Shown here: positions 32,501 to 64,000 of the stretch, piece after piece | How positions within the stretch are numbered: position 1 is the stretch's first letter | Layout: the number at the start of each line of letters is the position of its first letter | Assembly (NCBI RefSeq): GCF_037975245.1 | Contig: NC_092564.1 | Coordinates: forward strand, 12,550,484-12,614,483 | DNA from: Apostichopus japonicus | Taxonomy: Eukaryota > Echinodermata > Holothuroidea > Aspidochirotida > Stichopodidae | Direction of reading: 5' to 3' | Length of the DNA stretch: 64,000 nucleotides | Position numbers and translations under genes: made by a program | Notes under the pieces: model-generated | Databases searched by the model: none | The model's input: only the letters and a program-made list of their open reading frames with translations | What the model was told of the DNA's origin: nothing

Positions 32501-33562
32501 ATTTTCTTTCTACACAATGGAAATCATAATAGGGCTGCTCTCTTGAAATTTGTTACAAAAATAAGGAAAAAAACATCTTCCTGATATTATCCAAACTGAT
32601 AGTACAATATATTAAGGTGTAGTTCAAGCGCATGTGTGGCTAAGGTTGACCTCTCCTTATTGGCTTCTCATATCGAAGTTTGTTTTCTGTACAATTGTAC
32701 AAGGGCTCTGTACTACTATTACTAATAGTTTCTATGTTTAAAGATGTCTGACAGCTACTCCAAGCGCATTGCACTTACTTTGCGATATTAATCAGCCCCC
32801 CCCCCCCGCCCCTTTAGAAACATAACTCAACAAACTCAATGCTAATTAACTTAATGTTCTCAAAATCTAGATTTCAATTTGAAGCCATATGTCATGTTTC
32901 TGAAGAAAACCCATCCACCCCTCCCCCCTTCAAAAAAATATATGTATATGTTTTTTTAAATAAATAAAATGTCATTATTAAAAATATCATGTAGAATATT
33001 TCTGATAGAGGTGACAATTCAAAAATCACTTTACATTCCATCATTATCAGAGGACTACTGTAAGAGTGCTTCCCTATTAATTAGACAAAACAAACTGTGC
33101 ACCATTATTGTTGTTATTTTTCTCCTGATTGTTGGGTTTGGTATTTCTGTGTTCTTTTGGAGTATTTTCGTTTCTTTCCCTTACATCGATGGAACCAATT
33201 TAATTCTTTAATAATACATTCGACTCATCAGTCATGAGTTCCCTCGTTCGTAATTTAACATTCTTTCAAGATTTTGCTGGAAGCCTCGAAATCTAAACAT
33301 TCTACCCCTATAAAGACTGATCCCAAAGAGGCATAAAGTCTCCTCAAAAACATTGTAATTTTATCAACATGGTAACTTGTACCTTAATTACTTTGAGTCA
33401 TATTAAGTCATTACTTCCAAAAATAAATAGATCTTTCAAACCTGTCGTAAAAATCGATAAGAGGGATTTTTCTTTGGCAACACGACTCTTATACAAAGAC
33501 CCTCTTGTTCTCATTCCTGTTGCAGGAGTTCTCAAGAAGCTGCAGCCAAGAAGTTCTATTAA
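20429..33562 (+). CDS. LMAN1: LMAN1 / ERGIC-53 mannose-specific cargo lectin (13 coding exons, complete)
   Basis: Exons: 20429-20594, 22891-22947, 23590-23687, 24435-24704, 25209-25332, 25845-25915, 26344-26435, 26967-27018, 27962-28032, 29600-29806, 30365-30521, 31366-31472, 33526-33562. All introns are GT-AG, phases agree, and the total is 502 codons plus TAA; the human protein is 510. Order: signal peptide (about 1-23), L-type lectin domain (about 28-255), acidic coiled-coil stalk with a Gly/Pro-rich insert, a membrane span (about 469-491), and a cytosolic tail ending K-K-F-Y. The protein cycles between ER and ERGIC, binding high-mannose glycoproteins (with MCFD2 in vertebrates, coagulation factors V and VIII). 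Mapped by a constant offset of 16 from human numbering, the sugar and calcium ligands are all present: D105, D136, F138, N140, D141, N146, H162, D165, G235-G236. The paired cysteines C174 and C214 are also present. Confidence 0.97.
24435..24704 (+). CDS. LMAN1: LMAN1 exon 4: carbohydrate and calcium site
   Basis: Residues 108-197. It carries G-I-F-F-D-S-F-D-N-D, in which D136, F138, N140 and D141 are the Ca2+/mannose ligands, and Y-D-H-A-N-D-G with H162 and D165. C174 in G-G-C-M-R-D is the first half of the lectin-domain disulphide. Every catalogued ligand is intact, so an active lectin is expected. Confidence 0.95.
25209..25332 (+). CDS. LMAN1: LMAN1 exon 5: end of lectin domain
   Basis: Residues 198-238 include C214 (E-L-C-M-R), partner of C174, and F-G-V-S-A-A-T-G-G-L-A-D, the strongly conserved loop whose G235-G236 pair contacts mannose. 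Acceptor TTCTAG, donor GTGGGT. Confidence 0.95.
29600..29806 (+). CDS. LMAN1: LMAN1 exon 10: stalk coiled coil with Gly/Pro-rich insert
   Basis: The exon encodes L-E-K-K-L-D-E-I-V-G-R-Q-E-R-T-I, then a flexible stretch rich in Gly, Pro and Ser (T-P-S-G-G-P-P-G-G-S-G-S), then a second helix (E-V-D-T-L-L-N-T-Q-N-D-I). The second helix resembles vertebrate Q-E-L-D-T-V-V-K-T-Q-H-E. An open frame on the opposite strand (29573-29998) is a shadow. Confidence 0.9.
30570..30645. repeat. Polypurine G-rich tract in LMAN1 intron 11
   Basis: Repeated GGGAGG / GGGGGAGG runs about 50 bases after the exon 11 donor provide many more than four G-tracts of three or more on the transcribed-like strand. They could form a G-quadruplex in the pre-mRNA. 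Confidence 0.85.
31001..31072 (+). repeat. 11-bp tandem repeat (ATGAAGGTCAC) in LMAN1 intron 11
   Basis: About six units, several with substitutions, place AGGTCA hexamers at 31001, 31045 and 31056, with variants AAGTCA at 31034 and AGGTGG at 31067. The 11-base period leaves 5 bases between adjacent hexamers, the DR5 arrangement. Confidence 0.85.
31366..31472 (+). CDS. LMAN1: LMAN1 exon 12: lumenal cysteines and transmembrane span
   Basis: It encodes C-P-E-P-S-C (C462, C467), equivalent to the two cysteines that link ERGIC-53 subunits in vertebrates, where the gap is longer (C466/C475). Next comes a single membrane helix, L-T-F-I-I-F-A-V-A-Q-T-A-L-F-L-I-Y-F-M-Y-R. It is followed by a 2.05-kb last intron. 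Confidence 0.95.
33526..33562 (+). CDS. LMAN1: LMAN1 exon 13: cytosolic tail with K-K-F-Y sorting signal
   Basis: A small final coding piece after TTGCAG reads S-S-Q-E-A-A-A-K-K-F-Y then TAA. The dilysine at -4/-3 is the COPI retrieval signal. The terminal Phe-Tyr pair replaces the Phe-Phe that serves COPII exit in mammals. Phase 2 at the acceptor fits exon 12 exactly. Confidence 0.93.
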
Positions 33563-37285: not shown

Positions 37286-39559
37286 AGCATCACGATATGC
37301 TAGACAGGTTATGTGTAGTAGTCACCTGCAGTGTTGCCAAGCTCAGAGATTTTATCTTTTTAAGTATCTGGTTAGTGTCAGAACGTCATTTTGGAACACT
37401 CCTTAAGCAACATTAACATGCAATGTTAACCATAATTGGAACAAATAATTTTGAAAAGCGTTTGATGAGAGTTTGTCTGTTATATCATCATATAAAACTT
37501 AATAAAAAGGATTGAAATTCATCTTACCTTAAAAGAGCAACTTCACTGATCCCAAATTTTTTAGGTTTTTTTCTTCAAGGATATTTTCCACTAAAATTAA
37601 TTTCAGACTTCAAAGAGGATGACCCTTTAGATTTCACAATCCATCTGCAACAATATTAACTTTCGAGGTAGAACAAAAAAAAACCGGTGCTTACAGTTTT
37701 AGAAGTTTGTTTCCAATTTTAGGGTTGTCCAGTATACTTTCGGGCCAGTACTGTTTATGTGGAATGCATCTGTTCAGCATGATTCAGTTTAATGCCTATG
37801 GTTGATAAGAGTAAAATCTTTTAGATGCATTTCATGTTTGGAATTTTGATTTACATTTCAAATCTTTAATATATTGTGATTGCTTAGTGTATCCAGCACT
37901 AACAGGGTAGAATATCTGAATTATAATGTTATTAGCTGCAAGTTCATATATAATTTTTTTTCTTTTTGCCTTAGTTTAAACTTGTACAAATCACTTCAGT
38001 CGGGAATAGGTTTATTTAATGTTCATTAACATCTAAGTATATTCCACCTTGCACTGATTATATCTGTTATGACCACTTAGGTTGGGAGAGGGAGGTGGGG
38101 GGGGGGGGAGGGTTGGGAAGGAGTGAAGAGTTTAATAATTAACATGCCAACATTTTTCTCTTCCTTCCTTGAAACATTCCTTGTCAATTTGTTAGTGTTT
38201 GTTTAAGCGGTGGTAGTATGTTTTAACCTGTGTTTTATCTTGGTCTATCAACCTTTCCCCGTTGATGCCCTAAGATTTATTTTCATTGTGTGTAACTTCC
38301 AATAAATAATAGTCTTCTTTCGTCACTATGTGTATTTTATTCGGCACCTTTCAATTTCTTTTCTTTTCTGTTTTTTTTTTGTCTATATAATTAATCCGCA
38401 GTTATTTTATAATCATTGTATTATTGATTCATATTATTTTCTGTATTTGGCCGTTGAGGGATTCTCTACGGAAAGATCAGATGCCAATAAGGAAGTTAAT
38501 TTATGTCTTGCCATATACCATTATCACCTGACCCTCACCTGATCTCAATCTAGTTTCATGGAAATATAATGCGATGCAAAGGATTAAAACATTTTAAATG
38601 CCGAATTGATATACATTTTTCTTCAAACTTTCTCATTCTATAAACTTTTCAATAAAGTCCTGCGTAGCTCATTTTCACAATGTAAGCCACTTTCCTTGGA
38701 TTGATAGCAAATCAACATCTGTCTAAACTAGCAGAAAAAGGCCAGTGTTTTTTTTTTCTTCTGGAAAATGGCAGTAAATAGCCTGAGTTTGAAGGCCTGC
38801 TACTCTCAAAATTTTGAAACAGTTGGCCATTGGATTAAAAAACTGTCCTCGCACATCTGACCAAAGCAAACTTATTTTGATGCAAAATTTTCTTATATGC
38901 ATGTTTCATTTTCTTTTTGGATGCAGAATAAGATTGTCGTTGACTGTTGCTAGGGTAACCAAGCAGATTAAACAAATTGTCTCCTCATTTATTCCTAGGT
39001 CGTTAAGTTGAACGTGACAAATTTCTGAATTCATAAAATGATGTGTCAAAAGATAACTCCCCCCCCCCCCACCCCCCGGTTTTTATTTTTTGTTTTTAAT
39101 GTGAGCATGTTGATTTCTAACTCATAACATTTTATTGATCTTCTGACTTGATTCTACATCCTCTTTCTTATGTCAAAGTTCATCCCTTCTTTGGTTTTGT
39201 TGGTTCGTGGGAAAGATTACTATATGTCATAGTTTTAGGGCTATATTCAATAAAATGTGCAAATTTTCATTTCATGTCTCCGTGATTATTGCTGGCTGTC
39301 CAATACGTGGCAGTCGGGCGACCCGTTCTTTTATACACTGATTTTTTCCATTTACTAAGCACATCATACTATTACATGAGCAAAACCATTAATCACAAAG
39401 AAATACATTTCAATTGTGGTTATTATTAAAGGAATTAATGCTTTCCTTGGATGGAAAATGCATTGAAGTTTCGATTACTTCATTGCAATAGACTTCTGCT
39501 TATTCACCAGAAACAGCTATTATAATATAAATGTCCTGATTTCTACCATGAGATACACT

Positions 39560-40130
39560 ATCGTGTTTAAAGATACACTATCGTGTTTAAACGGTTTCCA
39601 GAGTTTGACTGCTGGTGACCCATATGACCTTTGACCTCTACCAAAAGCAATTGAGTTTTCTATTCAATATAACGCATCCGCATGCCACTTATAAATAATC
39701 TCCATGCGCCCTAACTTGAGATATAGTGTTTACAAGGTTTTCAGTGTTTGGTATCTGGTGACCTCAGATTACCTTTAACCTCCACGTTAAACATAAACTC
39801 CTTCTCTATATGATTCATGCACATGCCAAGTATAACAAGATTTCTACAATTTGACCCCTGGTAATGCCAAATGACTTTTGATCTCCACCAAAAGTAATAA
39901 GGGGCTTGAACTCAACGTGTCACAACTACGTACTAAATATAAGATTCGTCCAAGCTTTCCTTCATGAGATATCGTGTTTACATGTTTCAAAATTTGACCT
40001 CTGGTGACCCCAAATGACATTTGACCTCCCAGAAAACAATGATAGGGTTCTTTTACTCAATGTGGTATTCCTACACACCAATTATGAAATTGGTCCAATT
40101 TTCTCTTCTTGAGATATCGTATTTACAAGC
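39560..40130 (+). repeat. Four degenerate 120-145 bp modules with a DR1-like motif
   Basis: Each module contains a version of GAGATATCGTGTTTACA, a TTTGACCTCTGGTGACC-like stretch and TGACCTTTGACCTC. Modules begin near 39580, 39715, 39835 and 39965, with the start of a fifth at 40111. Divergence between them is high, so the array is old. It directly abuts the left inverted arm. Confidence 0.7.
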
Positions 40131-40495
40131 AATGCATCACACTCATCCACCTGTATGACTACAAAGTTTACCAATATCACGAAACCAAAACGCAGGATCA
40201 ATAACATTCTTGACCTGCGAAACTCCTGGTGTGATGAAGTCTTTCCTGGTTCTCCTCACAAATCGTATCCAGAGTTTCCAATACTCTCACTTCATTTTCG
40301 CTTGGAAAAAGTTGCCTCACTTATTTGAAATTTTGAGCAAAGTATATGGCAAGGAATCACAAAGCCAACTGGATTTTTTAAGTCTCCTTACATTGTTAGG
40401 TTCAAATATTAGAAATGAACATTATTTCTCAACAGTTACAGTGGTGCAGTGGTTAGTGCATGGGCGCAGTGGTTAGTGCATCAGTCTTGGATAAT
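40124..40495 (+). repeat. Left arm of inverted repeat flanking the satellite
   Basis: From TTACAAGCAATG to about TGCATCAGTC this segment is the reverse complement of 57631-57995, with scattered substitutions and small indels. Shared landmarks include CGCAGGATCAATAACATTCT, AACTCCTGGTGTGATGAAGT, AAGTCTCCTTACATTGTTAG and TCTCAACAGTTACAG. The inner end has a tRNA-like A-box sequence (CAGTGGTTAGTGCAT) present twice here and once in the right arm. Confidence 0.85.
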
Positions 40496-41385
40496 GGTTG
40501 GGACGCGTGTCTGATACTATCTAAGGGGCGCGACCGTGCGTTCGCGCGTAGCGTACAAGAAATTTTTGGGCAAATATACCTTCCAGATCGCCGGGAATAA
40601 CACTTCCCTGACCCAATGATGCTCCCAAACCTCCTCAAGTTTTAGACCTCATTGCTTAGAAATTTAGTTTGGGGAAATGCATGGGCGTCTGCAGAATAAA
40701 AAAATCAGGGGATAAATGATCCGAGTAGACTTTTGTATTCGATGGGTTTAGGGTCCTCTCCCATAAAACAATGATAGACTGCCGCAAATGCGATTTCCGT
40801 CCTATATTTAACAAATGTGGATAAATATAACAAATGAGAACTAGTGATCATATAAGTTATATCGACTTTATGAATGCTGCTCCTGCATGCTCGTATATTC
40901 ATCTTAGAAAGCTCATACGTCTCACAGTTTGACGAAAGTGTACTATAGTGGAGCAGGTTGTAAGCCGCAGTTTATTCTTACTTCAGAGACATATAATTAG
41001 AAACATCCAAATACTTTTCTTCCAAAATTTTATCTTCTCAAATTATTTCCCGAAATTGACCAAAACTTCAGCTAATTCAACTGAAAGTGGAAACACCGCA
41101 GGACGTGAAGCTAGCTCAAATTGCCAACACACAGTGTGAGTTGTTAACGATTGTTTCATTCGCACTCAGTCCGTTTTGCTGACCACAATTTACCAGTCTC
41201 GTGTATAGATTATGTTTCACATGATTGAATGTGTTAATACTTCAGCGGAACTAACTGCGCCAAAGTTCAATACAGGGGGATTTGAAATGCAGCGTTTGGT
41301 CAAGACAAATTGGTGGGAACACGGTATATCATGTCCCCACCACTGAAAAAGTTGGTGGGGCGCGTCCCGCTTTCCCCACCAGGAT
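40496..41385. other. Repeat-derived filler between left arm and tRNA-like units
   Basis: No gene is recognisable. It includes a CpG-rich patch at about 40525-40555 (GCGTTCGCGCGTAGCG) and a GTGGGGCGCGTCCC patch near 41357, both unlike the AT-rich surroundings and typical of nested transposable-element fragments. The short open frames here match nothing I know. Confidence 0.5.
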
Positions 41386-41775
41386 CTGCACCCATGGGTT
41401 AGTGGTCTGCACCTGAAGAGCAAGACAAACTCAATGTCTAGGGTTCAAACCCCTGTGAAGGCAGTTTCCTTTTTATTTTATTTTACCTCTTTCCTTCCAT
41501 TATGAACCTTTAAATGTTAGAAACAAGCATTATTTCTCAACAGTTACATTGGCGCGGTGGTTTGTTCTCAAGACAAACTCCATGTCTAGGGTTCAAATCC
41601 CAGTGTAGGCATTTGCTTTTGCTGTTCTTAATATCCATTTCCTCCCATTATGAACCTTAAATATTAGAAACAAAGCCTGTACCTGAAAACCAAGACACTC
41701 CTGTTATTTCTCATTATTTCTCAACAGTTACAGTGGTGCAGTGGTTAGTGCTTGTACCTGAAGAGCAAGACTTAT
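41386..41775 (+). mobile_element. Tandem tRNA-like (SINE) units next to satellite
   Basis: Two complete units and one truncated unit with a period near 148 bases. Each has an A-box-like GTGGTTAGTGC or derivative, an AGAGCAAGAC-type anticodon-arm region, and GTCTAGGGTTCAAATCCC (B box, T-arm). A linker containing ATTATGAACCTTTAAATGTT and TTTCTCAACAGTTACA follows. The third unit breaks off in the anticodon-arm region, exactly where the satellite starts. Confidence 0.65.
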
Positions 41776-41780
41776 ACTAC

Positions 41781-44700
41781 TCTTGTCACCTGGAAAGGAA
41801 TCCAAAGGGCGCCACACAACACAGGTACAATTTTAGGAAGAATTAAAAAAGTCGCGATTTTGGCCAAAATCGGACAAAATCATAAGGGTATAGCCTTATG
41901 AAATTGGCCATTTTGGGCCAAAAATGAAAGTTCTCAAATCTCTCCGAGAATACGTAGAAGGGACTCATAGCACCCAGTAGACGCTTTTCTCGGGTCAAAA
42001 GTGGCATTCGACGAAGTTTTTGTCATTTAAATTAGATATGAAATGACGTCAAGATATGGTTATTAAATTTCATTTTTCCACCAAAATATAAGTGTTTATA
42101 CAACTCTTGTCACCTGGAAAGGAATCCAAAGGGCGCCACACAACACAGGTACAATTTTGGGAAGAATTAAAAAAGTCGCGATTTTGGCCAAAATCGGAGA
42201 AAATCATAAGGGTATAGCCTTATGAAATTGGCCATTTTGGGCCAAAAATGAAAGTTCTCAAATCTCTCCGAGAATACGTAGAAGGGACTCATAGCACCCA
42301 GTAGACGCTTCTCTCGGGTCAAAAGTGGCATTCGACGAAGTTTTTGTCATTTAAATTAGATATGAAATGACGTCAAGTTATGGTTATTAAATTTCATTTT
42401 TCCACCAAAATATAAGTGTTTATACAACTCTTGTCACCTGGAAAGGAATCCAAAGGGCGCCACACAACACAGGTACAATTTTGGGAAGAATTAAAAAAGT
42501 CGCGATTTTGGCCAAAATCGGAGAAAATCATAAGGGTATAGCCTTATGAAATTGGCCATTTTGGGCCAAAAATGAAAGTTCTCAAATCTCTCCGAGAATA
42601 CGTAGAAGGGACTCATAGCACCCAGTAGACGCTTCTCTCGGGTCAAAAGTGGCATTCGACGAAGTTTTTGTCATTTAAATTAGATATGAAATGACGTCAA
42701 GTTATGGTTATTAAATTTCATTTTTCCACCAAAATATAAGTGTTTATACAACTCTTGTCACCTGGAAAGGAATCCAAAGGGCGCCACACAACACAGGTAC
42801 AATTTTGGGAAGAATTAAAAAAGTCGCGATTTTGGCCAAAATCGGACAAAATCATAAGGGTATAGCCTTATGAAATTGGCCATTTTGGGCCAAAAATGAA
42901 AGTTCTCAAATCTCTCCGAGAATACGTAGAAGGGACTCATAGCACCCAGTAGACGCTTTTCTCGGGTCAAAAGTGGCATTCGACGAAGTTTTTGTCATTT
43001 AAATTAGATATGAAATGACGTCAAGATATGGTTATTAAATTTCGTTTTTCCACCAAAATATAAGTGTTTATACAACTCTTGTCACCTGGAAAGGAATCCA
43101 AAGGGCGCCACACAACACAGGTACAATTTTGGGAAGAATTAAAAAAGTCGCGATTTTGGCCAAAATCGGAGAAAATCATAAGGGTATAGCCTTATGAAAT
43201 TGGCCATTTTGGGCCAAAAATGAAAGTTCTCAAATCTCTCCGAGAATACGTAGAAGGGACTCATAGCACCCAGTATACGTTTTTCTCGGGTCAAAAGTGG
43301 CATTCGACGAAGTTTTTGTCATTTAAATTAGATATGAAATGACGTCAAGATATGGTTATTAAATTTCGTTTTTCCACCAAAATATAAGTGTTTATACAAC
43401 TCTTGTCACCTGGAAAGGAATCCAAAGGGCGCCACACAACACGGGTACAATTTTGGGAAGAATTAAAAAAGTCGCGATTTTGGCCAAAATCGGAGAAAAT
43501 CATAAGGGTATAGCCTTATGAAATTGGCCATTTTGGGCCAAAAATGAAAGTTCTCAAATCTCTCCGAGAATACGTAGAAGGGACTCATAGCACCCAGTAG
43601 ACGCTTTTCTCGGGTCAAAAGTGGCATTCGACGAAGTTTTTGTCATTTAAATTAGATATGAAATGACGTCAAGATATGGTTATTAAATTTCGTTTTTCCA
43701 CCAAAATATAAGTGTTTATACAACTCTTGTCACCTGGAAAGGAATCCAAAGGGCGCCACACAACACAGGTACAATTTTGGGAAGAATTAAAAAAGTCGCG
43801 ATTTTGGCCAAAATCGGAGAAAATCATAAGGGTATAGCCTTATGAAATTGGCCATTTTGGGCCAAAAATGAAAGTTCTCAAATCTCTCCGAGAATACGTA
43901 GAAGGGACTCATAGCACCCAGTAGACGCTTTTCTCGGGTCAAAAATGGCATTCGACGAAGTTTTTGTCATTTAAATTAGATATGAAATGACGTCAAGATA
44001 TGGTTATTAAATTTCATTTTTCCACCAAAATATAAGTGTTTATACAACTCTTGTCACCTGGAAAGGAATCCAAAGGGCGCCACACAACACAGGTACAATT
44101 TTGGGAAGAATTAAAAAAGTCGCGATTTTGGCCAAAATCGGAGAAAATCATAAGGGTATAGCCTTATGAAATTGGCCATTTTGGGCCAAAAATGAAAGTT
44201 CTCAAATCTCTCCGAGAATACGTAGAAGGGACTCATAGCACCCAGTAGACGTTTTTCTCGGGTCAAAAGTGGCATTCGACAAAGTTTTTGTCATTTAAAT
44301 TAGATATGAAATGACGTCAAGATATGGTTATTAAATTTCATTTTTCCACCAAAATATAAGTGTTTATACAACTCTTGTCACCTGGAAAGGAATCCAAAGG
44401 GCGCCACACAACACAGGTACAATTTTGGGAAGAATTAAAAAAGTCACGATTTTGGCCAAAATCGGAGAAAATCATAAGGGTATAGCCTTATGAAATTGGC
44501 CATTTTGGGCCAAAAATGAAAGTTCTCAAATCTCTCCGAGAATACGTAGAAGGGACTCATAGCACCCAGTAGACGTTTTTCTCGGGTCAAAAGTGGCATT
44601 CGACGAAGTTTTTGTCATTTAAATTAGATATGAAATGACGTCAAGATATGGTTATTAAATTTCATTTTTCCACCAAAATATAAGTGTTTATACAACTCTT

Positions 44701-47700
44701 GTCACCGGGAAAGGAATCCAAAGGGCGCCACACAACACAGGTACAATTTTGGGAAGAATTAAAAAAGTCGCGATTTTGGCCAAAATCGGAGAAAATCATA
44801 AGGGTATAGCCTTATGAAATTGGCCATTTTGGGCCAAAAATGAAAGTTCTCAAATCTCTCCGAGAATACGTAGAAGGGACTCATAGCACCCAGTAGACGC
44901 TTTTCTCGGGTCAAAAATGGCATTCGACGAAGTTTTTGTCATTTAAATTAGATATGAAATGACGTCAAGATATGGTTATTAAATTTCGTTTTTCCACCAA
45001 AATATAAGTGTTTATACAACTCTTGTCACCTGGAAAGGAATCCAAAGGGCGCCACACAACACAGGTACAATTTTGGGAAGAATTAAAAAAGTCGCGATTT
45101 TGGCCAATATCGGAGAAAATCATAAGGGTATAGCCTTATGAAATTGGCCATTTTGGGCCAAAAATGAAAGTTCTCAAATCTCTCCGAGAATACGTAGAAG
45201 GGACTCATAGCACCCAGTAGACGTTTTTCTCGGGTCAAAAATGGCATTCGACGAAGTTTTTGTCATTTAAATTAGATATGAAATGACGTCAAGATATGGT
45301 TATTAAATTTCGTTTTTCCACCAAAATATAAGTGTTTATACAACTCTTGTCACCTGGAAAGGAATCCAAAGGGCGCCACACAACACAGGTACAATTTTGG
45401 GAAGAATTAAAAAAGTCGCGATTTTGGCCAAAATCGGAGAAAATCATAAGGGTATAGCCTTATGAAATTGGCCATTTTGGGCCAAAAATGAAAGTTCTCA
45501 AATCTCTCCGAGAATACGTAGAAGGGACTCATAGCACCCAGTAGACGCTTCTCTCGGGTCAAAAATGGCATTCGACGAAGTTTTTGTCATTTAAATTAGA
45601 TATGAAATGACGTCAAGATATGGTTATTAAATTTCGTTTTTCCACCAAAATATAAGTGTTTATACAACTCTTGTCACCTGGAAAGGAATCCAAAGGGCGC
45701 CACACAACACAGGTACAATTTTGGGAAGAATTAAAAAAGTCGCGATTTTGGCCAAAATCGGAGAAAATCATAAGGGTATAGCCTTATGAAATTGGCCATT
45801 TTGGGCCAAAAATGAAAGTTCTCAAATCTCTCCGAGAATACGTAGAAGGGACTCATAGCACCCAGTAGACGCTTCTCTCGGGTCAAAAGTGGCATTCGAC
45901 GAAGTTTTTGTCATTTAAATTAGATATGAAATGACGTCAAGTTATGGTTATTAAATTTCATTTTTCCACCAAAATATAAGTGTTTATACAACTCTTGTCA
46001 CCTGGAAAGGAATCTAAAGGGCGCCACACAACACAGGTACAATTTTGGGAAGAATTAAAAAAGTCACGATTTTGGCCAAAATCGGACAAAATCATAAGGG
46101 TATAGCCTTATGAAATTGGCCATTTTGGGCCAAAAATGAAAGTTCTCAAATCTCTCCGAGAATACGTAGAAGGGACTCATAGCACCCAGTAGACGCTTTT
46201 CTCGGGTCAAAAGTGGCATTCGACGAAGTTTTTGTCATTTAAATTAGATATGAAATGACGTCAAGATATGGTTATTAAATTTCATTTTTCCACCAAAATA
46301 TAAGTGTTTATACAACTCTTGTCACGTGGAAAGGAATCCAAAGGGCGCCACACAACACAGGTACAATTTTGGGAAGAATTAAAAAAGTCGCGATTTTGGC
46401 CAAAATCGGAGAAAATCATAAGGGTATAGCCTTATGAAATTGGCCATTTTGGGCCAAAAATGAAAGTTCTCAAATCTCTCCGAGAATACGTAGAAGGGAC
46501 TCATAGCACCCAGTAGACGTTTTTCTCGGGTCAAAAGTGGCATTCGACGAAGTTTTTGTCATTTAAATTAGATATGAAATGACGTCAAGATATGGTTATT
46601 AAATTTCGTTTTTCCACCAAAATATAAGTGTTTATACAACTCTTGTCACGTGGAAAGGAATCCAAAGGGCGCCACACAACACGGGTACAATTTTGGGAAG
46701 AATTAAAAAAGTCGCGATTTTGGCCAAAATCGGAGAAAATCATAAGGGTATAGCCTTATGAAATTGGCCATTTTGGGCCAAAAATGAAAGTTCTCAAATC
46801 TCCCCGAGAATACGTAGAAGGGACTCATAGCACCCAGTAGACGCTTTTCTCGGGTCAAAAGTGGCATTCGACGAAGTTTTTGTCATTTAAATTAGATATG
46901 AAATGACGTCAAGATATGGTTATTAAATTTCATTTTTCCACCAAAATATAAGTGTTTATACAACTCTTGTCACCTGGAAAGGAATCCAAAGGGCGCCACA
47001 CAACACAGGTACAATTTTGGGAAGAATTAAAAAAGTCGCGATTTTGGCCAATATCGGAGAAAATCATAAGGGTATAGCCTTATGAAATTGGCCATTTTGG
47101 GCCAAAAATGAAAGTTCTCAAATCTCTCCGAGAATACGTAGAAGGGACTCATAGCACCCAGTAGACGTTTTTCTCGGGTCAAAAATGGCATTCGACGAAG
47201 TTTTTGTCATTTAAATTAGATATGAAATGACGTCAAGATATGGTTATTAAATTTCGTTTTTCCACCAAAATATAAGTGTTTATACAACTCTTGTCACCTG
47301 GAAAGGAATCCAAAGGGCGCCACACAACACAGGTACAATTTTGGGAAGAATTAAAAAAGTCGCGATTTTGGCCAAAATCGGAGAAAATCATAAGGGTATA
47401 GCCTTATGAAATTGGCCATTTTGGGCCAAAAATGAAAGTTCTCAAATCTCTCCGAGAATACGTAGAAGGGACTCATAGCACCCAGTAGACGCTTCTCTCG
47501 GGTCAAAAATGGCATTCGACGAAGTTTTTGTCATTTAAATTAGATATGAAATGACGTCAAGATATGGTTATTAAATTTCGTTTTTCCACCAAAATATAAG
47601 TGTTTATACAACTCTTGTCACCTGGAAAGGAATCCAAAGGGCGCCACACAACACAGGTACAATTTTGGGAAGAATTAAAAAAGTCGCGATTTTGGCCAAA

Positions 47701-50700
47701 ATCGGAGAAAATCATAAGGGTATAGCCTTATGAAATTGGCCATTTTGGGCCAAAAATGAAAGTTCTCAAATCTCTCCGAGAATACGTAGAAGGGACTCAT
47801 AGCACCCAGTAGACGCTTCTCTCGGGTCAAAAGTGGCATTCGACGAAGTTTTTGTCATTTAAATTAGATATGAAATGACGTCAAGTTATGGTTATTAAAT
47901 TTCATTTTTCCACCAAAATATAAGTGTTTATACAACTCTTGTCACCTGGAAAGGAATCTAAAGGGCGCCACACAACACAGGTACAATTTTGGGAAGAATT
48001 AAAAAAGTCACGATTTTGGCCAAAATCGGACAAAATCATAAGGGTATAGCCTTATGAAATTGGCCATTTTGGGCCAAAAATGAAAGTTCTCAAATCTCTC
48101 CGAGAATACGTAGAAGGGACTCATAGCACCCAGTAGACGCTTCTCTCGGGTCAAAAGTGGCATTCGACGAAGTTTTTGTCATTTAAATTAGATATGAAAT
48201 GACGTCAAGTTATGGTTATTAAATTTCGTTTTTCCACCAAAATATAAGTGTTTATACAACTCTTGTCACCTGGAAAGGAATCCAAAGGGCGCCACACAAC
48301 ACAGGTACAATTTTGGGAAGAATTAAAAAAGTCGCGATTTTGGCCAAAATCGGAGAAAATCATAAGGGTATAGCCTTATGAAATTGGCCATTTTGGGCCA
48401 AAAATGAAAGTTCTCAAATCTCTCCGAGAATACGTAGAAGGGACTCATAGCACCCAGTAGACGCTTTTCTCGGGTCAAAAATGGCATTCGACGAAGTTTT
48501 TGTCATTTAAATTAGATATGAAATGACGTCAAGATATGGTTATTAAATTTCATTTTTCCACCAAAATATAAGTGTTTATACAACTCTTGTCACCTGGAAA
48601 GGAATCCAAAGGGCGCCACACAACACAGGTACAATTTTGGGAAGAATTAAAAAAGTCGCGATTTTGGCCAAAATCGGAGAAAATCATAAGGGTATAGCCT
48701 TATGAAATTGGCCATTTTGGGCCAAAAATGAAAGTTCTCAAATCTCTCCGAGAATACGTAGAAGGGACTCATAGCACCCAGTAGACGCTTTTCTCGGGTC
48801 AAAAGTGGCATTCGACGAAGTTTTTGTCATTTAAATTAGATATGAAATGACGTCAAGATATGGTTATTAAATTTCATTTTTCCACCAAAATATAAGTGTT
48901 TATACAACTCTTGTCACGTGGAAAGGAATCCAAAGGGCGCCACACAACACAGGTACAATTTTGGGAAGAATTAAAAAAGTCGCGATTTTGGCCAAAATCG
49001 GAGAAAATCATAAGGGTATAGCCTTATGAAATTGGCCATTTTGGGCCAAAAATGAAAGTTCTCAAATCTCTCCGAGAATACGTAGAAGGGACTCATAGCA
49101 CCCAGTAGACGTTTTTCTCGGGTCAAAAGTGGCATTCGACGAAGTTTTTGTCATTTAAATTAGATATGAAATGACGTCAAGATATGGTTATTAAATTTCG
49201 TTTTTCCACCAAAATATAAGTGTTTATACAACTCTTGTCACCTGGAAAGGAATCCAAAGGGCGCCACACAACACGGGTACAATTTTGGGAAGAATTAAAA
49301 AAGTCGCGATTTTGGCCAAAATCGGAGAAAATCATAGCCTTATGAAATTGGCCATTTTGGGCCAAAAATGAAAGTTCTCAAATCTCTCCGAGAATACGTA
49401 GAAGGGACTCATAGCACCCAGTAGACGCTTTTCTCGGGTCAAAAGTGGCATTCGACGAAGTTTTTGTCATTTAAATTAGATATGAAATGACGTCAAGTTA
49501 TGGTTATTAAATTTCGTTTTTCCACCAAAATATAAGTGTTTATACAACTCTTGTCACCTGGAAAGGAATCCAAAGGGCGCCACACAACACAGGTACAATT
49601 TTGGGAAGAATTAAAAAAGTCGCGATTTTGGCCAAAATCGGAGAAAATCATAAGGGTATAGCCTTATGAAATTGGCCATTTTGGGCCAAAAATGAAAGTT
49701 CTCAAATCTCTCCGAGAATACGTAGAAGGGACTCATAGCACCCAGTAGACGCTTTTCTCGGGTCAAAAATGGCATTCGACGAAGTTTTTGTCATTTAAAT
49801 TAGATATGAAATGACGTCAAGATATGGTTATTAAATTTCATTTTTCCACCAAAATATAAGTGTTTATACAACTCTTGTCACCTGGAAAGGAATCCAAAGG
49901 GCGCCACACAACACAGGTACAATTTTGGGAAGAATTAAAAAAGTCGCGATTTTGGCCAAAATCGGAGAAAATCATAAGGGTATAGCCTTATGAAATTGGC
50001 CATTTTGGGCCAAAAATGAAAGTTCTCAAATCTCTCCGAGAATACGTAGAAGGGACTCATAGCACCCAGTAGACGCTTTTCTCGGGTCAAAAGTGGCATT
50101 CGACGAAGTTTTTGTCATTTAAATTAGATATGAAATGACGTCAAGATATGGTTATTAAATTTCATTTTTCCACCAAAATATAAGTGTTTATACAACTCTT
50201 GTCACGTGGAAAGGAATCTAAAGGGCGCCACACAACACAGGTACAATTTTGGGAAGAATTAAAAAAGTCGCGATTTTGGCCAAAATCGGAGAAAATCATA
50301 AGGGTATAGCCTTATGAAATTGGCCATTTTGGGCCAAAAATGAAAGTTCTCAAATCTCTCCGAGAATACGTAGAAGGGACTCATAGCACCCAGTAGACGT
50401 TTTTCTCGGGTCAAAAGTGGCATTCGACGAAGTTTTTGTCATTTAAATTAGATATGAAATGACGTCAAGATATGGTTATTAAATTTCGTTTTTCCACCAA
50501 AATATAAGTGTTTATACAACTCTTGTCACCTGGAAAGGAATCCAAAGGGCGCCACACAACACGGGTACAATTTTGGGAAGAATTAAAAAAGTCGCGATTT
50601 TGGCCAAAATCGGAGAAAATCATAAGGGTATAGCCTTATGAAATTGGCCATTTTGGGCCAAAAATGAAAGTTCTCAAATCTCCCCGAGAATACGTAGAAG

Positions 50701-53700
50701 GGACTCATAGCACCCAGTAGACGCTTTTCTCGGGTCAAAAGTGGCATTCGACGAAGTTTTTGTCATTTAAATTAGATATGAAATGACGTCAAGATATGGT
50801 TATTAAATTTCATTTTTCCACCAAAATATAAGTGTTTATACAACTCTTGTCACCTGGAAAGGAATCCAAAGGGCGCCACACAACACAGGTACAATTTTGG
50901 GAAGAATTAAAAAAGTCGCGATTTTGGCCAAAATCGGAGAAAATCATAAGGGTATAGCCTTATGAAATTGGCCATTTTGGGCCAAAAATGAAAGTTCTCA
51001 AATCTCTCCGAGAATACGTAGAAGGGACTCATAGCACCCAGTAGACGCTTTTCTCGGGTCAAAAGTGGCATTCGACGAAGTTTTTGTCATTTAAATTAGA
51101 TATGAAATGACGTCAAGATATGGTTATTAAATTTCATTTTTCCACCAAAATATAAGTGTTTATACAACTCTTGTCACCTGGAAAGGAATCCAAAGGGCGC
51201 CACACAACACAGGTACAATTTTGGGAAGAATTAAAAAAGTCGCGATTTTGGCCAAAATCGGAGAAAATCATAAGGGTATAGCCTTATGAAATTGGCCATT
51301 TTGGGCCAAAAATGAAAGTTCTCAAATCTCTCCGAGAATACGTAGAAGGGACTCATAGCACCCAGTAGACGCTTTTCTCGGGTCAAAAATGGCATTCGAC
51401 GAAGTTTTTGTCATTTAAATTAGATATGAAATGACGTCAAGATATGGTTATTAAATTTCATTTTTCCACCAAAATATAAGTGTTTATACAACTCTTGTCA
51501 CGTGGAAAGGAATCCAAAGGGCGCCACACAACACAGGTACAATTTTGGGAAGAATTAAAAAAGTCGCGATTTTGGCCAAAATCGGAGAAAATCATAAGGG
51601 TATAGCCTTATGAAATTGGCCATTTTGGGCCAAAAATGAAAGTTCTCAAATCTCTCCGAGAATACGTAGAAGGGACTCATAGCACCCAGTAGACGCTTTT
51701 CTCGGGTCAAAAGTGGCATTCGACGAAGTTTTTGTCATTTAAATTAGATATGAAATGACGTCAAGATATGGTTATTAAATTTCGTTTTTCCACCAAAATA
51801 TAAGTGTTTATACAACTCTTGTCACCTGGAAAGGAATCCAAAGGGCGCCACACAACACGGGTACAATTTTGGGAAGAATTAAAAAAGTCGCGATTTTGGC
51901 CAAAATCGGAGAAAATCATAAGGGTATAGCCTTATGAAATTGGCCATTTTGGGCCAAAAATGAAAGTTCTCAAATCTCCCCGAGAATACGTAGAAGGGAC
52001 TCATAGCACCCAGTAGACGCTTTTCTCGGGTCAAAAGTGGCATTCGACGAAGTTTTTGTCATTTAAATTAGATATGAAATGACGTCAAGATATGGTTATT
52101 AAATTTCATTTTTCCACCAAAATATAAGTGTTTATACAACTCTTGTCACCTGGAAAGGAATCCAAAGGGCGCCACACAACACAGGTACAATTTTGGGAAG
52201 AATTAAAAAAGTCGCGATTTTGGCCAAAATCGGAGAAAATCATAAGGGTATAGCCTTATGAAATTGGCCATTTTGGGCCAAAAATGAAAGTTCTCAAATC
52301 TCTCCGAGAATACGTAGAAGGGACTCATAGCACCCAGTAGACGCTTTTCTCGGGTCAAAAGTGGCATTCGACGAAGTTTTTGTCATTTAAATTAGATATG
52401 AAATGACGTCAAGATATGGTTATTAAATTTCATTTTTCCACCAAAATATAAGTGTTTATACAACTCTTGTCACCTGGAAAGGAATCCAAAGGGCGCCACA
52501 CAACACAGGTACAATTTTGGGAAGAATTAAAAAAGTCGCGATTTTGGCCAAAATCGGAGAAAATCATAAGGGTATAGCCTTATGAAATTGGCCATTTTGG
52601 GCCAAAAATGAAAGTTCTCAAATCTCTCCGAGAATACGTAGAAGGGACTCATAGCACCCAGTAGACGTTTTTCTCGGGTCAAAAGTGGCATTCGACGAAG
52701 TTTTTGTCATTTAAATTAGATATGAAATGACGTCAAGATATGGTTATTAAATTTCGTTTTTCCACCAAAATATAAGTGTTTATACAACTCTTGTCACCTG
52801 GAAAGGAATCCAAAGGGCGCCACACAACACGGGTACAATTTTGGGAAGAATTAAAAAAGTCGCGATTTTGGCCAAAATCGGAGAAAATCATAAGGGTATA
52901 GCCTTATGAAATTGGCCATTTTGGGCCAAAAATGAAAGTTCTCAAATCTCCCCGAGAATACGTAGAAGGGACTCATAGCACCCAGTAGACGCTTTTCTCG
53001 GGTCAAAAGTGGCATTCGACGAAGTTTTTGTCATTTAAATTAGATATGAAATGACGTCAAGATATGGTTATTAAATTTCATTTTTCCACCAAAATATAAG
53101 TGTTTATACAACTCTTGTCACCTGGAAAGGAATCCAAAGGGCGCCACACAACACAGGTACAATTTTGGGAAGAATTAAAAAAGTCGCGATTTTGGCCAAA
53201 TCGGACAAAATCATAAGGGTATAGCCTTATGAAATTGGCCATTTTGGGCCAAAAATGAAAGTTCTCAAATCTCTCCGAGAATACGTAGAAGGGACTCATA
53301 GCACCCAGTAGACGCTTCTCTCGGGTCAAAAGTGGCATTCGACGAAGTTTTTGTCATTTAAATTAGATATGAAATGACGTCAAGATATGGTTATTAAATT
53401 TCATTTTTCCACCAAAATATAAGTGTTTATACAACTCTTGTCACCTGGAAAGGAATCCAAAGGGCGCCACACAACACAGGTACAATTTTGGGAAGAATTA
53501 AAAAAGTCGCGATTTTGGCCAAAATCGGACAAAATCATAAGGGTATAGCCTTATGAAATTGGCCATTTTGGGCCAAAAATGAAAGTTCTCAAATCTCTCC
53601 GAGAATACGTAGAAGGGACTCATAGCACCCAGTAGACGCTTCTCTCGGGTCAAAAGTGGCATTCGACGAAGTTTTTGTCATTTAAATTAGATATGAAATG

Positions 53701-56700
53701 ACGTCAAGTTATGGTTATTAAATTTCATTTTTCCACCAAAATATAAGTGTTTATACAACTCTTGTCACCTGGAAAGGAATCCAAAGGGCGCCACACAACA
53801 CAGGTACAATTTTGGGAAGAATTTAAAAAGTCGCGATTTTGGCCAAAATCGGAGAAAATCATAAGGGTATAGCCTTATGAAATTGGCCATTTTGGGCCAA
53901 AAATGAAAGTTCTCAAATCTCTCCGAGAATACGTAGAAGGGACTCATAGCACCCAGTAGACGTTTTTCTCGGGTCAAAAGTGGCATTCGACGAAGTTTTT
54001 GTCATTTAAATTAGATATGAAATGACGTCAAGATATGGTTATTAAATTTCATTTTTCCACCAAAATATAAGTGTTTATACAACTCTTGTCACCGGGAAAG
54101 GAATCCAAAGGGCGCCACACAACACAGGTACAATTTTGGGAAGAATTAAAAAAGTCACGATTTTGGCCAAAATCGGAGAAAATCATAAGGGTATAGCCTT
54201 ATGAAATTGGCCATTTTGGGCCAAAAATGAAAGTTCTCAAATCTCTCCGAGAATACGTAGAAGGGACTCATAGCACCCAGTAGACGCTTTTCTCGGGTCA
54301 AAAGTGGCATTCGACGAAGTTTTTGTCATTTAAATTAGATATGAAATGACGTCAAGATATGGTTATTAAATTTCATTTTTCCACCAAAATATAAGTGTTT
54401 ATACAACTCTTGTCACCTGGAAAGGAATCCAAAGGGCGCCACACAACACAGGTACAATTTTGGGAAGAATTAAAAAAGTCGCGATTTTGGCCAAAATCGG
54501 AGAAAATCATAAGGGTATAGCCTTATGAAATTGGCCATTTTGGGCCAAAAATGAAAGTTCTCAAATCTCTCCGAGAATACGTAGAAGGGACTCATAGCAC
54601 CCAGTAGACGCTTTTCTCGGGTCAAAAGTGGCATTCGACGAAGTTTTTGTCATTTAAATTAGATATGAAATGACGTCAAGATATGGTTATTAAATTTCAT
54701 TTTTCCACCAAAATATAAGTGTTTATACAACTCTTGTCACCTGGAAAGGAATCCAAAGGGCGCCACACAACACAGGTACAATTTTGGGAAGAATTAAAAA
54801 AGTCGCGATTTTGGCCAAAATCGGAGAAAATCATAAGGGTATAGCCTTATGAAATTGGCCATTTTGGGCCAAAAATGAAAGTTCTCAAATCTCTCCGAGA
54901 ATACGTAGAAGGGACTCATAGCACCCAGTAGACGTTTTTCTCGGGTCAAAAGTGGCATTCGACGAAGTTTTTGTCATTTAAATTAGATATGAAATGACGT
55001 CAAGATATGGTTATTAAATTTCGTTTTTCCACCAAAATATAAGTGTTTATACAACTCTTGTCACCTGGAAAGGAATCCAAAGGGCGCCACACAACACGGG
55101 TACAATTTTGGGAAGAATTAAAAAAGTCGCGATTTTGGCCAAAATCGGAGAAAATCATAAGGGTATAGCCTTATGAAATTGGCCATTTTGGGCCAAAAAT
55201 GAAAGTTCTCAAATCTCCCCGAGAATACGTAGAAGGGACTCATAGCACCCAGTAGACGCTTTTCTCGGGTCAAAAGTGGCATTCGACGAAGTTTTTGTCA
55301 TTTAAATTAGATATGAAATGACGTCAAGATATGGTTATTAAATTTCATTTTTCCACCAAAATATAAGTGTTTATACAACTCTTGTCACCTGGAAAGGAAT
55401 CCAAAGGGCGCCACACAACACAGGTACAATTTTGGGAAGAATTAAAAAAGTCGCGATTTTGGCCAAAATCGGAGAAAATCATAAGGGTATAGCCTTATGA
55501 AATTGGCCATTTTGGGCCAAAAATGAAAGTTCTCAAATCTCTCCGAGAATACGTAGAAGGGACTCATAGCACCCAGTAGACGCTTTTCTCGGGTCAAAAG
55601 TGGCATTCGACGAAGTTTTTGTCATTTAAATTAGATATGAAATGACGTCAAGATATGGTTATTAAATTTCATTTTTCCACCAAAATATAAGTGTTTATAC
55701 AACTCTTGTCACCTGGAAAGGAATCCAAAGGGCGCCACACAACACAGGTACAATTTTGGGAAGAATTAAAAAAGTCGCGATTTTGGCCAAAATCGGAGAA
55801 AATCATAAGGGTATAGCCTTATGAAATTGGCCATTTTGGGCCAAAAATGAAAGTTCTCAAATCTCTCCGAGAATACGTAGAAGGGACTCATAGCACCCAG
55901 TAGACGTTTTTCTCGGGTCAAAAGTGGCATTCGACGAAGTTTTTGTCATTTAAATTAGATATGAAATGACGTCAAGATATGGTTATTAAATTTCGTTTTT
56001 CCACCAAAATATAAGTGTTTATACAACTCTTGTCACCTGGAAAGGAATCCAAAGGGCGCCACACAACACAGGTACAATTTTGGGAAGAATTAAAAAAGTC
56101 GCGATTTTGGCCAAAATCGGACAAAATCATAAGGGTATAGCCTTATGAAATTGGCCATTTTGGGCCAAAAATGAAAGTTCTCAAATCTCTCCGAGAATAC
56201 GTAGAAGGGACTCATAGCACCCAGTAGACGCTTTTCTCGGGTCAAAAGTGGCATTCGACGAAGTTTTTGTCATTTAAATTAGATATGAAATGACGTCAAG
56301 ATATGGTTATTAAATTTCATTTTTCCACCAAAATATAAGTGTTTATACAACTCTTGTCACCTGGAAAGGAATCCAAAGGGCGCCACACAACACAGGTACA
56401 ATTTTGGGAAGAATTAAAAAAGTCGCGATTTTGGCCAAAATCGGAGAAAATCATAAGGGTATAGCCTTATGAAATTGGCCATTTTGGGCCAAAAATGAAA
56501 GTTCTCAAATCTCTCCGAGAATACGTAGAAGGGACTCATAGCACCCAGTAGACGCTTTTCTCGGGTCAAAAGTGGCATTCGACGAAGTTTTTGTCATTTA
56601 AATTAGATATGAAATGACGTCAAGATATGGTTATTAAATTTCATTTTTCCACCAAAATATAAGTGTTTATACAACTCTTGTCACCTGGAAAGGAATCCAA

Positions 56701-57629
56701 AGGGCGCCACACAACACAGGTACAATTTTGGGAAGAATTAAAAAAGTCGCGATTTTGGCCAAATCGGAGAAAATCATAAGGGTATAGCCTTATGAAATTG
56801 GCCATTTTGGGCCAAAAATGAAAGTTCTCAAATCTCTCCGAGAATACGTAGAAGGGACTCATAGCACCCAGTAGACGCTTTTCTCGGGTCAAAAATGGCA
56901 TTCGACGAAGTTTTTGTCATTTAAATTAGATATGAAATGACGTCAAGATATGGTTATTAAATTTCATTTTTCCACCAAAATATAAGTGTTTATACAACTC
57001 TTGTCACCTGGAAAGGAATCCAAAGGGCGCCACACAACACAGGCACAATTTTGGGAAGAATTAAAAAAGTCGCGATTTTGGCCAAAATCGGAGAAAATCA
57101 TAAGGGTATAGCCTTATGAAATTGGCCATTTTGGGCCAAAAATGAAAGTTCTCAAATCTCTCCGAGAATACGTAGAAGGGACTCATAGCACCCAGTAGAC
57201 GCTTTTCTCGGGTCAAAAATGGCATTTGACGAAGTTTTTGTCATTTAAATTAGATATGAAATGACGTCAAGATATGGTTATTAAATTTCATTTTTCCACC
57301 AAAATATAAGTGTTTATACAACTCTTGTCACCTGGAAAGGAATCCAAAGGGCGCCACACAACACAGGTACAATTTTGGGAAGAATTAAAAAAGTCGCGAT
57401 TTTGGCCAAAATCGGACAAAATCATAAGGGTATAGCCTTATGAAATTGGCCATTTTGGGCCAAAAATGAAAGTTCTCAAATCTCTCCGAGAATACGTAGA
57501 AGGGACTCATAGCACCCAGTAGACGCTTCTCTCGGGTCAAAAATGGCATTCGACGAAGTTTTTGTCATTTAAATTAGATATGAAATGACGTCAAGATATG
57601 GTTATTAAATTTCATTTTCCACCAAAATA
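41781..57629 (+). repeat. Satellite array, 324-bp monomer, 48 full copies plus one partial
   Basis: Monomers run head to tail from TCTTGTCACCTGG at 41781. Successive starts fall at 42105, 42429, 42753, 43077 and so on, every 324 bases. The last start is 57323, and the array ends inside that copy at 57629. Length changes are few: an 8-bp deletion at about 49336, and one-base deletions near 53200, near 56760 and in the final copy. Monomers differ at only a handful of positions. Each contains an 18-bp perfect palindrome (first copy 41855-41872), a 20-bp stem-loop sequence CATAAGGGTATAGCCTTATG (41881-41900), a TTGGCC/GGCCAA inverted pair (41904-41921), a GGGCGCC site and TGACGTCA (42044-42051). 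Near-identity indicates recent amplification or ongoing homogenisation. No monomer carries a believable coding sequence: 324 is a multiple of three, but stops occur in each unit. Confidence 0.98.
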
Positions 57630-57630
57630 T

Positions 57631-57995
57631 CATAGTCATGACTGATCTGTGCCCATGCACTAACAACTGTAACTGTTGAGGGAAATAATCCTCCTTTCTA
57701 ATATTTGAACCTAACAATGTAAGGAGACTTTAAAAAAAAAAAAAAAGAACCAGTTGGCTTTGTGATTCCTTGCCAAATACTTTGCTAAAAATTTCAATTA
57801 AGTGAAGCAATTTTTCAAGCGAAAAAGTACTGAGAGGTATTGGAAACTCTGGATACGATTTGTGAGGAGAACCAGAAAGACTTCATCACACCAGGAGTTT
57901 CGCAGGACAAGAATGTTATTGATCCTGCGTTTTGGTTTCGTGATAATGGTAACCTTTGTAGTTATACAAGCGGATGAGTGTGTGTTACACATTGC
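57631..57995 (-). repeat. Right arm of inverted repeat flanking the satellite
   Basis: Reverse complement of 40124-40495. It begins within a few bases of the last satellite monomer (CATAGTCATGACTGATCTG) and ends near ACATTGCTTGTAAC. It has a 14-base poly-A run at about 57732-57745 where the left arm has a short T run. An open frame of 100 codons across it matches no known protein and follows the repeat, so it is not called as a gene. Confidence 0.85.
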
Positions 57996-58690
57996 TTGTA
58001 ACATCCTGACTGAAATTTCAATGTCTGGTCTAAATTTGACATTAACAAGTATGATAGGACCTCACTTAAGATCACACAGAAAATCATATGTGGGTTTGTC
58101 TTGACCAATAGTAGAGAAATGGGGCTACATATATTGATACTCCCTCTCAAACATGTGCATTAGAAGTGAGGAAAAGTCTTCCGGGTCTCTATTTGTTATT
58201 CCTGTAAAATTCTCAGCGTTAAATCAAATGGCTCTCTTGATCTGATTGTTAGGTGAGTTTCGGCGATACATAGTGTCAAACATCGGTAAACGGTAACATT
58301 TCAATCCACGAAGAGAACAATGCCAGAGAAATATAGCGATCCTTGTGTATCACGTGACGACATCCAGTAATAGTTTGTAGCTATTGAATGACTATGTATG
58401 TGTTGTCTCTCTTTCCAATTCATCAGCTTTCAGGATGAACAACATCTTTAATCCCCCGAATTCAGATGCCTGATTACGTAAGTCTATCATTCACTTATTG
58501 TTGCGTATATGTTCTTATAGTGACTAAGGCCTAATTATAAATTATGCTAACATTAGCCTACCATTAAAATTGACTACTACACATATGTATTTCGCTATCT
58601 TTGAAGGTCATCTCAGAGAAATCATCGATTTGCATGCCGGGATGAATAGTAACGATATTATCACTTCTCTATAATCAGAAGGAACCCTTC
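57996..58690. other. Unassigned AT-rich intergenic DNA
   Basis: I see no gene, RNA or clear repeat here on either strand. Confidence 0.6.

Positions 58691-63454: not shown

Positions 63455-64000
<546 letters not shown>

What the first reader, a model, noticed from the sequence alone, without database searches (positions are those of the whole stretch)
41781..57629. Young, highly homogeneous 324-bp satellite between LMAN1 and SMAD4
Forty-eight full monomers and one partial lie in strict register, with only four length changes in 15.8 kb and few variant sites. I do not recognise the monomer as any named satellite. Its place between two conserved genes, not in an obviously gene-free region, suggests either a locally expanded euchromatic satellite or an outpost of a larger centromeric or heterochromatic family.
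Basis: partly seen in the sequence, partly recalled or inferred. Interest (0 to 1): 0.7.

Follow-up and report, generated by a model that had tools for sequence, protein, structure and literature searches.

The report
Local expansion of a scattered satellite
A 15.9-kb run of 49 near-identical 324-base repeats between two conserved animal genes is real, but it looks like a local expansion of a repeat family scattered over many chromosomes of this genome; the part worth following is a short, dyad-symmetric stretch that old branches of the family share while the rest has drifted apart.

Summary
The array is real: 41772-57630, period 324, 49.0 copies at 98% match, with one 316-bp and two 323-bp monomers and one base lost in the last, partial copy. 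It is not alone: a family 32-mer, up to 3 mismatches, has 1,918 hits in this 671.6-Mb genome, reversed control 0, with many loci near contig ends. The window array is a private local expansion: a diagnostic 24-mer occurs exactly 49 times, all here. Repeated blocks inside it fit unequal exchange. Some other arrays are as homogeneous. It lies between LMAN1-like and SMAD4-like genes that converge, next to older dispersed repeats. A carrier transposon is not supported by the flanks seen. Beyond the finding: the family belongs to a superfamily of about 300-340-bp repeats sharing a ~90-bp dyad-symmetric box, 73-80% identical where the rest is 37-48%. Evidence for constraint is mixed: inside arrays the box varies as much as the rest, RNA pairing is not supported, a CENP-B box is not above chance, and families were found through the box. 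Shared boxes are known from nematode satellites. Ordinary overall, with one testable lead.

The parts
41772..57630 (+). 324-bp satellite array, 48 full monomers plus one partial of 317 bp
42158..42264 (+). example of the dyad-symmetric box (core AAAATCATAAGGGTATAGCCTTA) in the second monomer; the exact core is in 47 of 48 full monomers of this array
49224..49539 (+). the one 316-bp monomer
   Evidence: spacings, starts listed
39455..41771 (+). dispersed repeat on the left flank (edge near 39455 in three other loci), with partial tRNA/SINE-like tandem units at 41397-41771; the array starts directly after it
   Evidence: tRNA likeness is recalled, ARAGORN finds no tRNA
57637..58690 (-). related dispersed repeat on the right flank, inverted; 57647-58001 matches 40123-40469 at 85.5%, the outer parts belong to different variants
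23352..33562 (+). LMAN1-like gene: Lectin_leg-like matches in the open frames 23352-23747 and 24435-24791; possible end at a KKFY-stop near 33548-33562
   Evidence: end inferred from a motif only
63455..63829 (-). open frame holding the last coding exon of a SMAD4-like gene (MH2 C-terminus)

Best explanation
A local expansion of one monomer type of a dispersed, low-abundance satellite family. Shown: the family occurs at many loci, most sampled arrays carry their own variant, and the window array carries a private variant in all 49 copies. Shown: the same multi-monomer block recurs inside the array, as unequal exchange or block duplication leaves behind. Inferred: one founder monomer or short stretch arrived in a repeat-rich gap between two convergent genes (by ectopic recombination or reinsertion of a circular copy), fixed a few private substitutions, then grew by unequal exchange; that this was recent is inferred from homogeneity. 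No function at this site is needed to explain it. At the level of the superfamily the ~90-bp dyad box changes more slowly than the rest between deep branches, which I take as weak long-term constraint on a double-stranded DNA feature rather than an RNA; that step is uncertain.
For: Family 32-mer with up to 3 mismatches: 986 + 932 hits, reversed control 0 + 0. Private 24-mer: 49 exact hits, all in this array. Identity within the array 98.9% against 82.7-95.4% to 14 other sampled arrays or pieces. Monomers 11-13 match 17-19 at all 14 informative sites, and the pair 28-29 recurs at 32-33 and 42-43. Pairwise difference does not grow with distance: 3.60 at lag 1, 3.88 at lag 24, range 3.46-4.32 over lags 1-24. 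In a tree of 184 monomers from 12 arrays, 10 of 12 arrays form one clade each, the window array among them. Among 16 flank pieces of sampled arrays only a C9 duplication and one 108-bp match are shared.
Against: Support for the window clade in the tree is only 0.19. Order of arrival and expansion is not observed, and no clock dates it. Both array edges touch copies of a dispersed repeat, and one of the five other loci of that repeat that I fetched (C4:23.71 Mb, L012) also has a superfamily array nearby, so a role of that repeat in seeding arrays is not excluded. Copy number rests on one assembly.
Confidence: 0.85

Rival explanations
1. The array is an outpost of a centromeric or pericentromeric satellite, and the arrays mark (peri)centromeres.
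For: 25 of 32 superfamily loci lie within 5 Mb of a contig end, 12.7 expected if uniform. On C2 and C9, in listings complete for those contigs, hits lie at one end only, as expected for acrocentric pericentromeres; on C6 they lie towards one end apart from a 77% copy at 8.9 Mb. The array-bearing ends of C2, C9 and C22 carry telomere repeats.
Against: No exact hit is listed on C1 or C3. Abundance is small: 2,348 exact cores, by arithmetic about 0.1% of the genome. The window array is 15.9 kb in mid-contig between genes. The array-bearing ends of C6 and C18 show no telomere array in the 3 kb examined. Loci were merged by eye from capped listings, some are single hits of 180-700 bp not shown to be arrays, and loci on one contig are not independent.
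Confidence: 0.3
2. A transposon (Helitron/Helentron or inverted-terminus type) carries the repeats, as reported for oyster.
For: The array borders lie in a dispersed repeat with 24 further matches of about 200 bp or more outside the window; the dyad symmetry of the box could be abutting inverted termini; a superfamily array lies near the same repeat at C4:23.71 Mb.
Against: The two flanking copies are inverted to each other and share only their inner ~350 bp while their outer parts differ, opposite to what terminal inverted repeats would show. In 25 other array loci the best matches to the flanking repeat are 127 bp at 76% and 136 bp at 68%, though many of those loci lie wholly inside arrays and say little about flanks. 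Flanks are not shared between most sampled arrays. Monomers are homologous along their length, not only at one segment. Helitron termini were not searched for.
Confidence: 0.1
3. The box is conserved only in appearance: families were found because they share it, and the rest is alignable but near saturation.
For: Deep families were found by a similarity search in which the box is the best-matching part. Inside 19 arrays box and rest vary alike (133 of 1,710 against 364 of 4,377 sites, ratio 0.94); four near pairs of arrays show no reduction (19 against 50 differences, p 0.89). In two of 21 arrays the box is the more variable part (p 0.008 and 0.0003).
Against: Four deep, non-overlapping pairs have fewer box differences than the within-array ratio predicts (43 against 197, Fisher p 0.0097); with all eight pairs p is 0.034. 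In four of 21 arrays the box is the less variable part at p below 0.05, the window array among them (p 0.0029). Rest-of-monomer alignments beat shuffles in 18 of 18 pairs, the weakest reached by 5 of 200 shuffles, so one lineage shows two rates. Variants shared by neighbouring monomers are not independent, so all these p-values are optimistic.
Confidence: 0.45
4. The box is a transcribed RNA hairpin or ribozyme.
For: The window box folds better than shuffles (z -4.05 on +, -5.17 on -); so do the C7 (z -2.05) and C15b (z -3.66) boxes.
Against: Only 1 of 13 consensus pairs shows changes on both sides over 19 sequences. The C6:18.3 Mb box folds no better than shuffles (z +1.06). In 41000-43500 no Rfam family reaches its gathering score.
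Confidence: 0.05

Closest known systems
Meloidogyne satellite DNAs with a conserved Box 1 (PMC3694981: abstract and the section on conserved motifs read; PMC9673304: abstract and list of sections read)
   Same: Several divergent satellites of one genome share a short conserved segment while overall identity is low (32-64% and 36-74% there).
   Different: There the box is 17 bp, CENP-B-box-like and found at monomer junctions; here it is about 90 bp, dyad-symmetric, with a CENP-B match no better than chance, and the rest of the monomer is still detectably homologous.
Oyster satellite repeats carried by Helentrons/Helitrons (PMC7492417: abstract and list of sections read; PMC8268682: passages read)
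   Same: Arrays scattered through the genome, some next to mobile elements.
   Different: No shared element boundary around the arrays sampled here, and loci lie mostly near contig ends, whereas PMC8268682 reports no preferred chromosomal position.
Locus-specific satellite subfamilies under concerted evolution (general knowledge)
   Same: High identity within arrays, lower between arrays.
   Different: Nothing essential.

Membership tests
Satellite DNA family under concerted evolution | Long head-to-tail arrays of one monomer | tested here: met
Satellite DNA family under concerted evolution | More alike within arrays than between | tested here: met
   93.9-99.5% within the 13 arrays or pieces with two or more monomers; 79.7-96.4% between, except three C9 pieces (0.706, 0.714, 1.998 Mb) that are 97.6-97.9% alike. 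C9:3.12 (93.9% within) is no more alike inside than some arrays are to each other.
Satellite DNA family under concerted evolution | Multi-locus family in the genome | tested here: met
Centromeric satellite | On all chromosomes at the CENP-A domain | tested here: inconclusive
   No exact hit listed on C1 or C3; CENP-A cannot be tested
CENP-B-box satellite | NTTCGNNNNANNCGGGN (motif recalled) | tested here: not met
   Window consensus: best 7 of 9 essential bases, reached by 155 of 300 shuffles; whole window, up to 1 mismatch: 1 hit, outside the array, 4.06 expected
Helitron/Helentron central repeats | Array inside one element with common ends | tested here: inconclusive
   Flanking copies are inverted and differ outwards; no common flank among most sampled arrays; Helitron termini not searched, and many fetched loci hold no flank
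Ribozyme-bearing satellite | Rfam ribozyme match | tested here: not met
   Window 41000-43500, E up to 5: only two mir-588 matches of 23.1 bits, gathering score 70
Named satellite in Repbase or Dfam | Database identity | not testable with these tools
   Neither library is available

The most novel reading that the evidence does not exclude
A satellite superfamily with loci on at least 12 contigs is held together by selection on one ~90-bp dyad box, a binding site for an unknown (perhaps transposase-derived) protein that is analogous to, but not homologous with, the CENP-B box; the rest of the monomer is free spacer of roughly constant length.
Probability: 0.2. Interest if true: 0.65.

Novelty: new member of a known kind. 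Interest (0 to 1): 0.33.

Why it matters
The array itself is an ordinary but clean example of a satellite spreading into gene-bearing DNA: one private variant, one locus, readable block repeats. The shared box would matter if constraint on it is real, because it gives a defined DNA bait to ask whether satellites outside vertebrates and nematodes are kept by a sequence-specific protein.

Tried and rejected
Insertion of the array into one transposon copy: not supported, because the flanking copies are inverted to each other and share only their inner part. An empty site was looked for among five fetched loci of the repeat; none matches both sides of the array in order.

RNA hairpin: disfavoured for lack of paired changes. 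CENP-B box: not above chance. A-tract phasing: AA/TT spacing of 8.8-9.1 bp in the box is reached by 6 or fewer of 200 shuffles in five of seven families, but by 63 in C15a and 36 in C23; the window's non-box part also stands out at 11.2 bp (2 of 200). The period is not the helical repeat; left open.

A CpG-to-TpG variant of the family 32-mer, meant to sample the distribution, has 0 hits.

The first cut of monomers used a best-match search that skips inexact cores, so it favoured intact cores and dropped C18, C5 and C6:8.9. The window-by-window identities rest on that cut. Searches use a later cut with anchors away from the core. There the exact core is in 47 of 48 window monomers but in 0 of 9 at C18 and 3 of 8 at C2:0.945; 19 of 21 array consensus sequences carry it exactly. 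C9:1.311 and C4:23.71 were left out of the segregating-site count, and these two were also left out of the 19-sequence box alignment.

Species: not identified. Two literature searches for the assembly size gave no match. Three searches touching echinoderm satellites showed no such repeat in the titles and abstract openings listed: 20 of 101 papers, 15 of 704, 12 of 971. That is a statement about those listings only. Searches looked for conserved boxes and for dispersed arrays in general.

Full report
The observation. The array is present as described, from 41772 to 57630: period 324, 49.0 copies, 98% match, score 30934. Spacings are 324 except one 316 and two 323; the last, partial copy lacks one T. 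Over 48 monomers 28 of 324 columns vary, 14 of them singletons.

The place. The window is C4:12550484-12614483 of a 671.6-Mb genome in 35 contigs. Upstream on + is a gene with Lectin_leg-like exons (LMAN1 type), downstream on - the MH2-bearing last exon of a SMAD4-like gene. A KKFY-stop at 33548 is a possible end of the first gene (inferred). The array thus seems to lie between two 3' ends. Directly left is a dispersed repeat whose edge near 39455 is shared by three other loci, followed by partial tRNA/SINE-like tandem units (likeness recalled; ARAGORN finds no tRNA gene). Directly right is a related copy, inverted; the two share about 350 bp at 85.5%, while their outer parts match different copies elsewhere. 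The right-hand repeat has 24 further matches of about 200 bp or more outside the window. The inverted order, with the inner and not the outer part shared, speaks against the array being an insertion into one element copy.

The family. A 32-mer of the monomer, up to three mismatches, has 986 forward and 932 reverse hits and its reversed control none. Listings are capped at 100 places, so I sampled loci with several patterns and similarity searches. Merged by eye they give 32 superfamily loci on 12 contigs. Some are single hits of 180-700 bp (for example C9:0.28, C10:19.17, C21:4.50 and several on C6) and are not shown to be arrays; at C5:10.37 Tandem Repeats Finder gave no row over 100 bp. Short hits at C2:5.7, C8, C15:13.0 and C16 were left out. 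Of the 32, 25 lie within 5 Mb of a contig end, 12.7 expected if uniform. Telomere repeats are present at 5 of 9 contig ends examined: among array-bearing ends, C2 left, C9 left and C22 right have them, C6 right and C18 left do not in 3 kb. On C2 and C9 hits lie at one end only in listings complete for those contigs. C1 and C3 have no exact hit in the listings. This would fit pericentromeres of acrocentric chromosomes as well as chromosome-end clusters; I cannot decide.

Homogenisation. Fifteen arrays or array pieces were compared (a sixteenth locus, C6:8.9 Mb, gave no countable monomer; at most 12 monomers per array were used). The thirteen with two or more monomers are 93.9-99.5% identical inside; between arrays identity is 79.7-96.4%, except three C9 pieces (0.706, 0.714 and 1.998 Mb) that are 97.6-97.9% alike. 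The window array, 98.9%, is high but not the highest. In a tree of 184 monomers from 12 arrays, 10 of 12 form one clade each; C9:0.706 does not, and C9:2.57 spans the root because it was used as outgroup.

Growth inside the array. At 14 informative sites monomers 11-13 equal 17-19, and the pair 28-29 recurs at 32-33 and 42-43. Mean difference is flat with distance, 3.60 at lag 1 and 3.88 at lag 24. This fits repeated unequal exchange or block duplication with mixing. How the founder arrived is inferred only: among 16 flank pieces of sampled arrays, a C9 duplication and one 108-bp match are all that is shared, and the window's flanking repeat matches 25 other array loci only over 127 bp at 76% and 136 bp at 68% plus two 42-bp pieces, many of these loci lying wholly inside arrays.

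A superfamily with a box. One of five other fetched loci of the flanking repeat, C4:23.71 Mb, has beside it an array of another ~316-bp repeat. Searching with it found related repeats on C5, C6, C7, C9, C10, C15, C21 and C23. Unit lengths are mostly 304-335 bp, with a 399-bp variant at C6:18.3. A core, AAAATCATAAGG[GC]TATA[GC]CCTTA, is exact in 19 of 21 array consensus sequences. Genome-wide there are 1,293 + 1,055 exact cores, reversed control none. Against eight deep families the window consensus is 73-80% identical in the box and 37-48% in the rest (that alignment came from a cut that favoured intact cores). The rest is still homologous: in 18 of 18 pairs it scores above shuffles, the weakest reached by 5 of 200.

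Is the box constrained? Evidence is mixed. Segregating sites inside 19 arrays are as dense in the box as outside (133 of 1,710 against 364 of 4,377). Four deep pairs have fewer box differences than that predicts (43 against 197, Fisher p 0.0097), four near pairs do not (19 against 50, p 0.89), all eight together give p 0.034. By substitution counts in 21 arrays the box is less variable at p below 0.05 in four (the window array p 0.0029) and more variable in two (p 0.008 and 0.0003). Monomers in an array are not independent, so these p-values are optimistic, and the families were found through the box. Any constraint is weak and long-term; the box is no mutational cold spot.

What the box might be. 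It is an imperfect dyad centred on TATA; in the C6 and C21 families the centre reads as the reverse complement. As RNA it folds better than shuffles in C4, C7 and C15b but not in C6:18.3, and only 1 of 13 consensus pairs shows paired change. No Rfam family reaches its gathering score in 41000-43500. The best CENP-B-box match has 7 of 9 essential bases, as do 155 of 300 shuffles. A double-stranded binding site for an unknown protein is the boldest reading that remains.

Known comparison. Root-knot nematode satellites of low overall identity share a conserved 17-bp CENP-B-like Box 1 (PMC3694981, abstract and one section read; PMC9673304, abstract and list of sections). Oyster satellites are scattered and often carried by Helentrons or Helitrons (PMC7492417, abstract and list of sections; PMC8268682, passages). 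The present family resembles the first in having a shared box, though a longer and different one, and the second in being scattered, without a common carrier seen so far. I file it as a new member of a known kind. The finding as given deserves a low to moderate score; the box is the part to follow.

Noticed in passing
window 39455-41771 and 57637-58690; C4:23.71 Mb (L012): Copies of a dispersed repeat border the window array on both sides, and one of five other fetched loci of that repeat also lies near a superfamily array.
   Followed up: partly
window 41397-41771; L012:601-1028; L013; L014: Tandem units of about 150-190 bp with tRNA-like A- and B-box wording inside the dispersed repeat (tRNA resemblance recalled; ARAGORN finds no tRNA in the window).
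   Followed up: no
L006 (C9:0.717 Mb) and L020 (C9:1.998 Mb): An array edge with 1.47 kb of flank is duplicated at 94.6% identity about 1.3 Mb apart on C9.
   Followed up: no
C2:1395867-1413685: Exact-core spacings of 324, 299, 323 and 325 recur in similar order, a possible higher-order repeat.
   Followed up: no
L038, L039, L040 box centres: Box centre GGGTATAGCC is replaced by its reverse complement GGCTATACCC in the C21 and C6:18.3 families, two linked changes.
   Followed up: partly
window 12035-13210: Strongly G-skewed 118-bp tandem repeat followed by a 23-bp one, amid long open frames upstream of the LMAN1-like gene.
   Followed up: no
window 1847-2592: 48-bp tandem repeat with 111-, 127- and 175-bp higher orders.
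   Followed up: no
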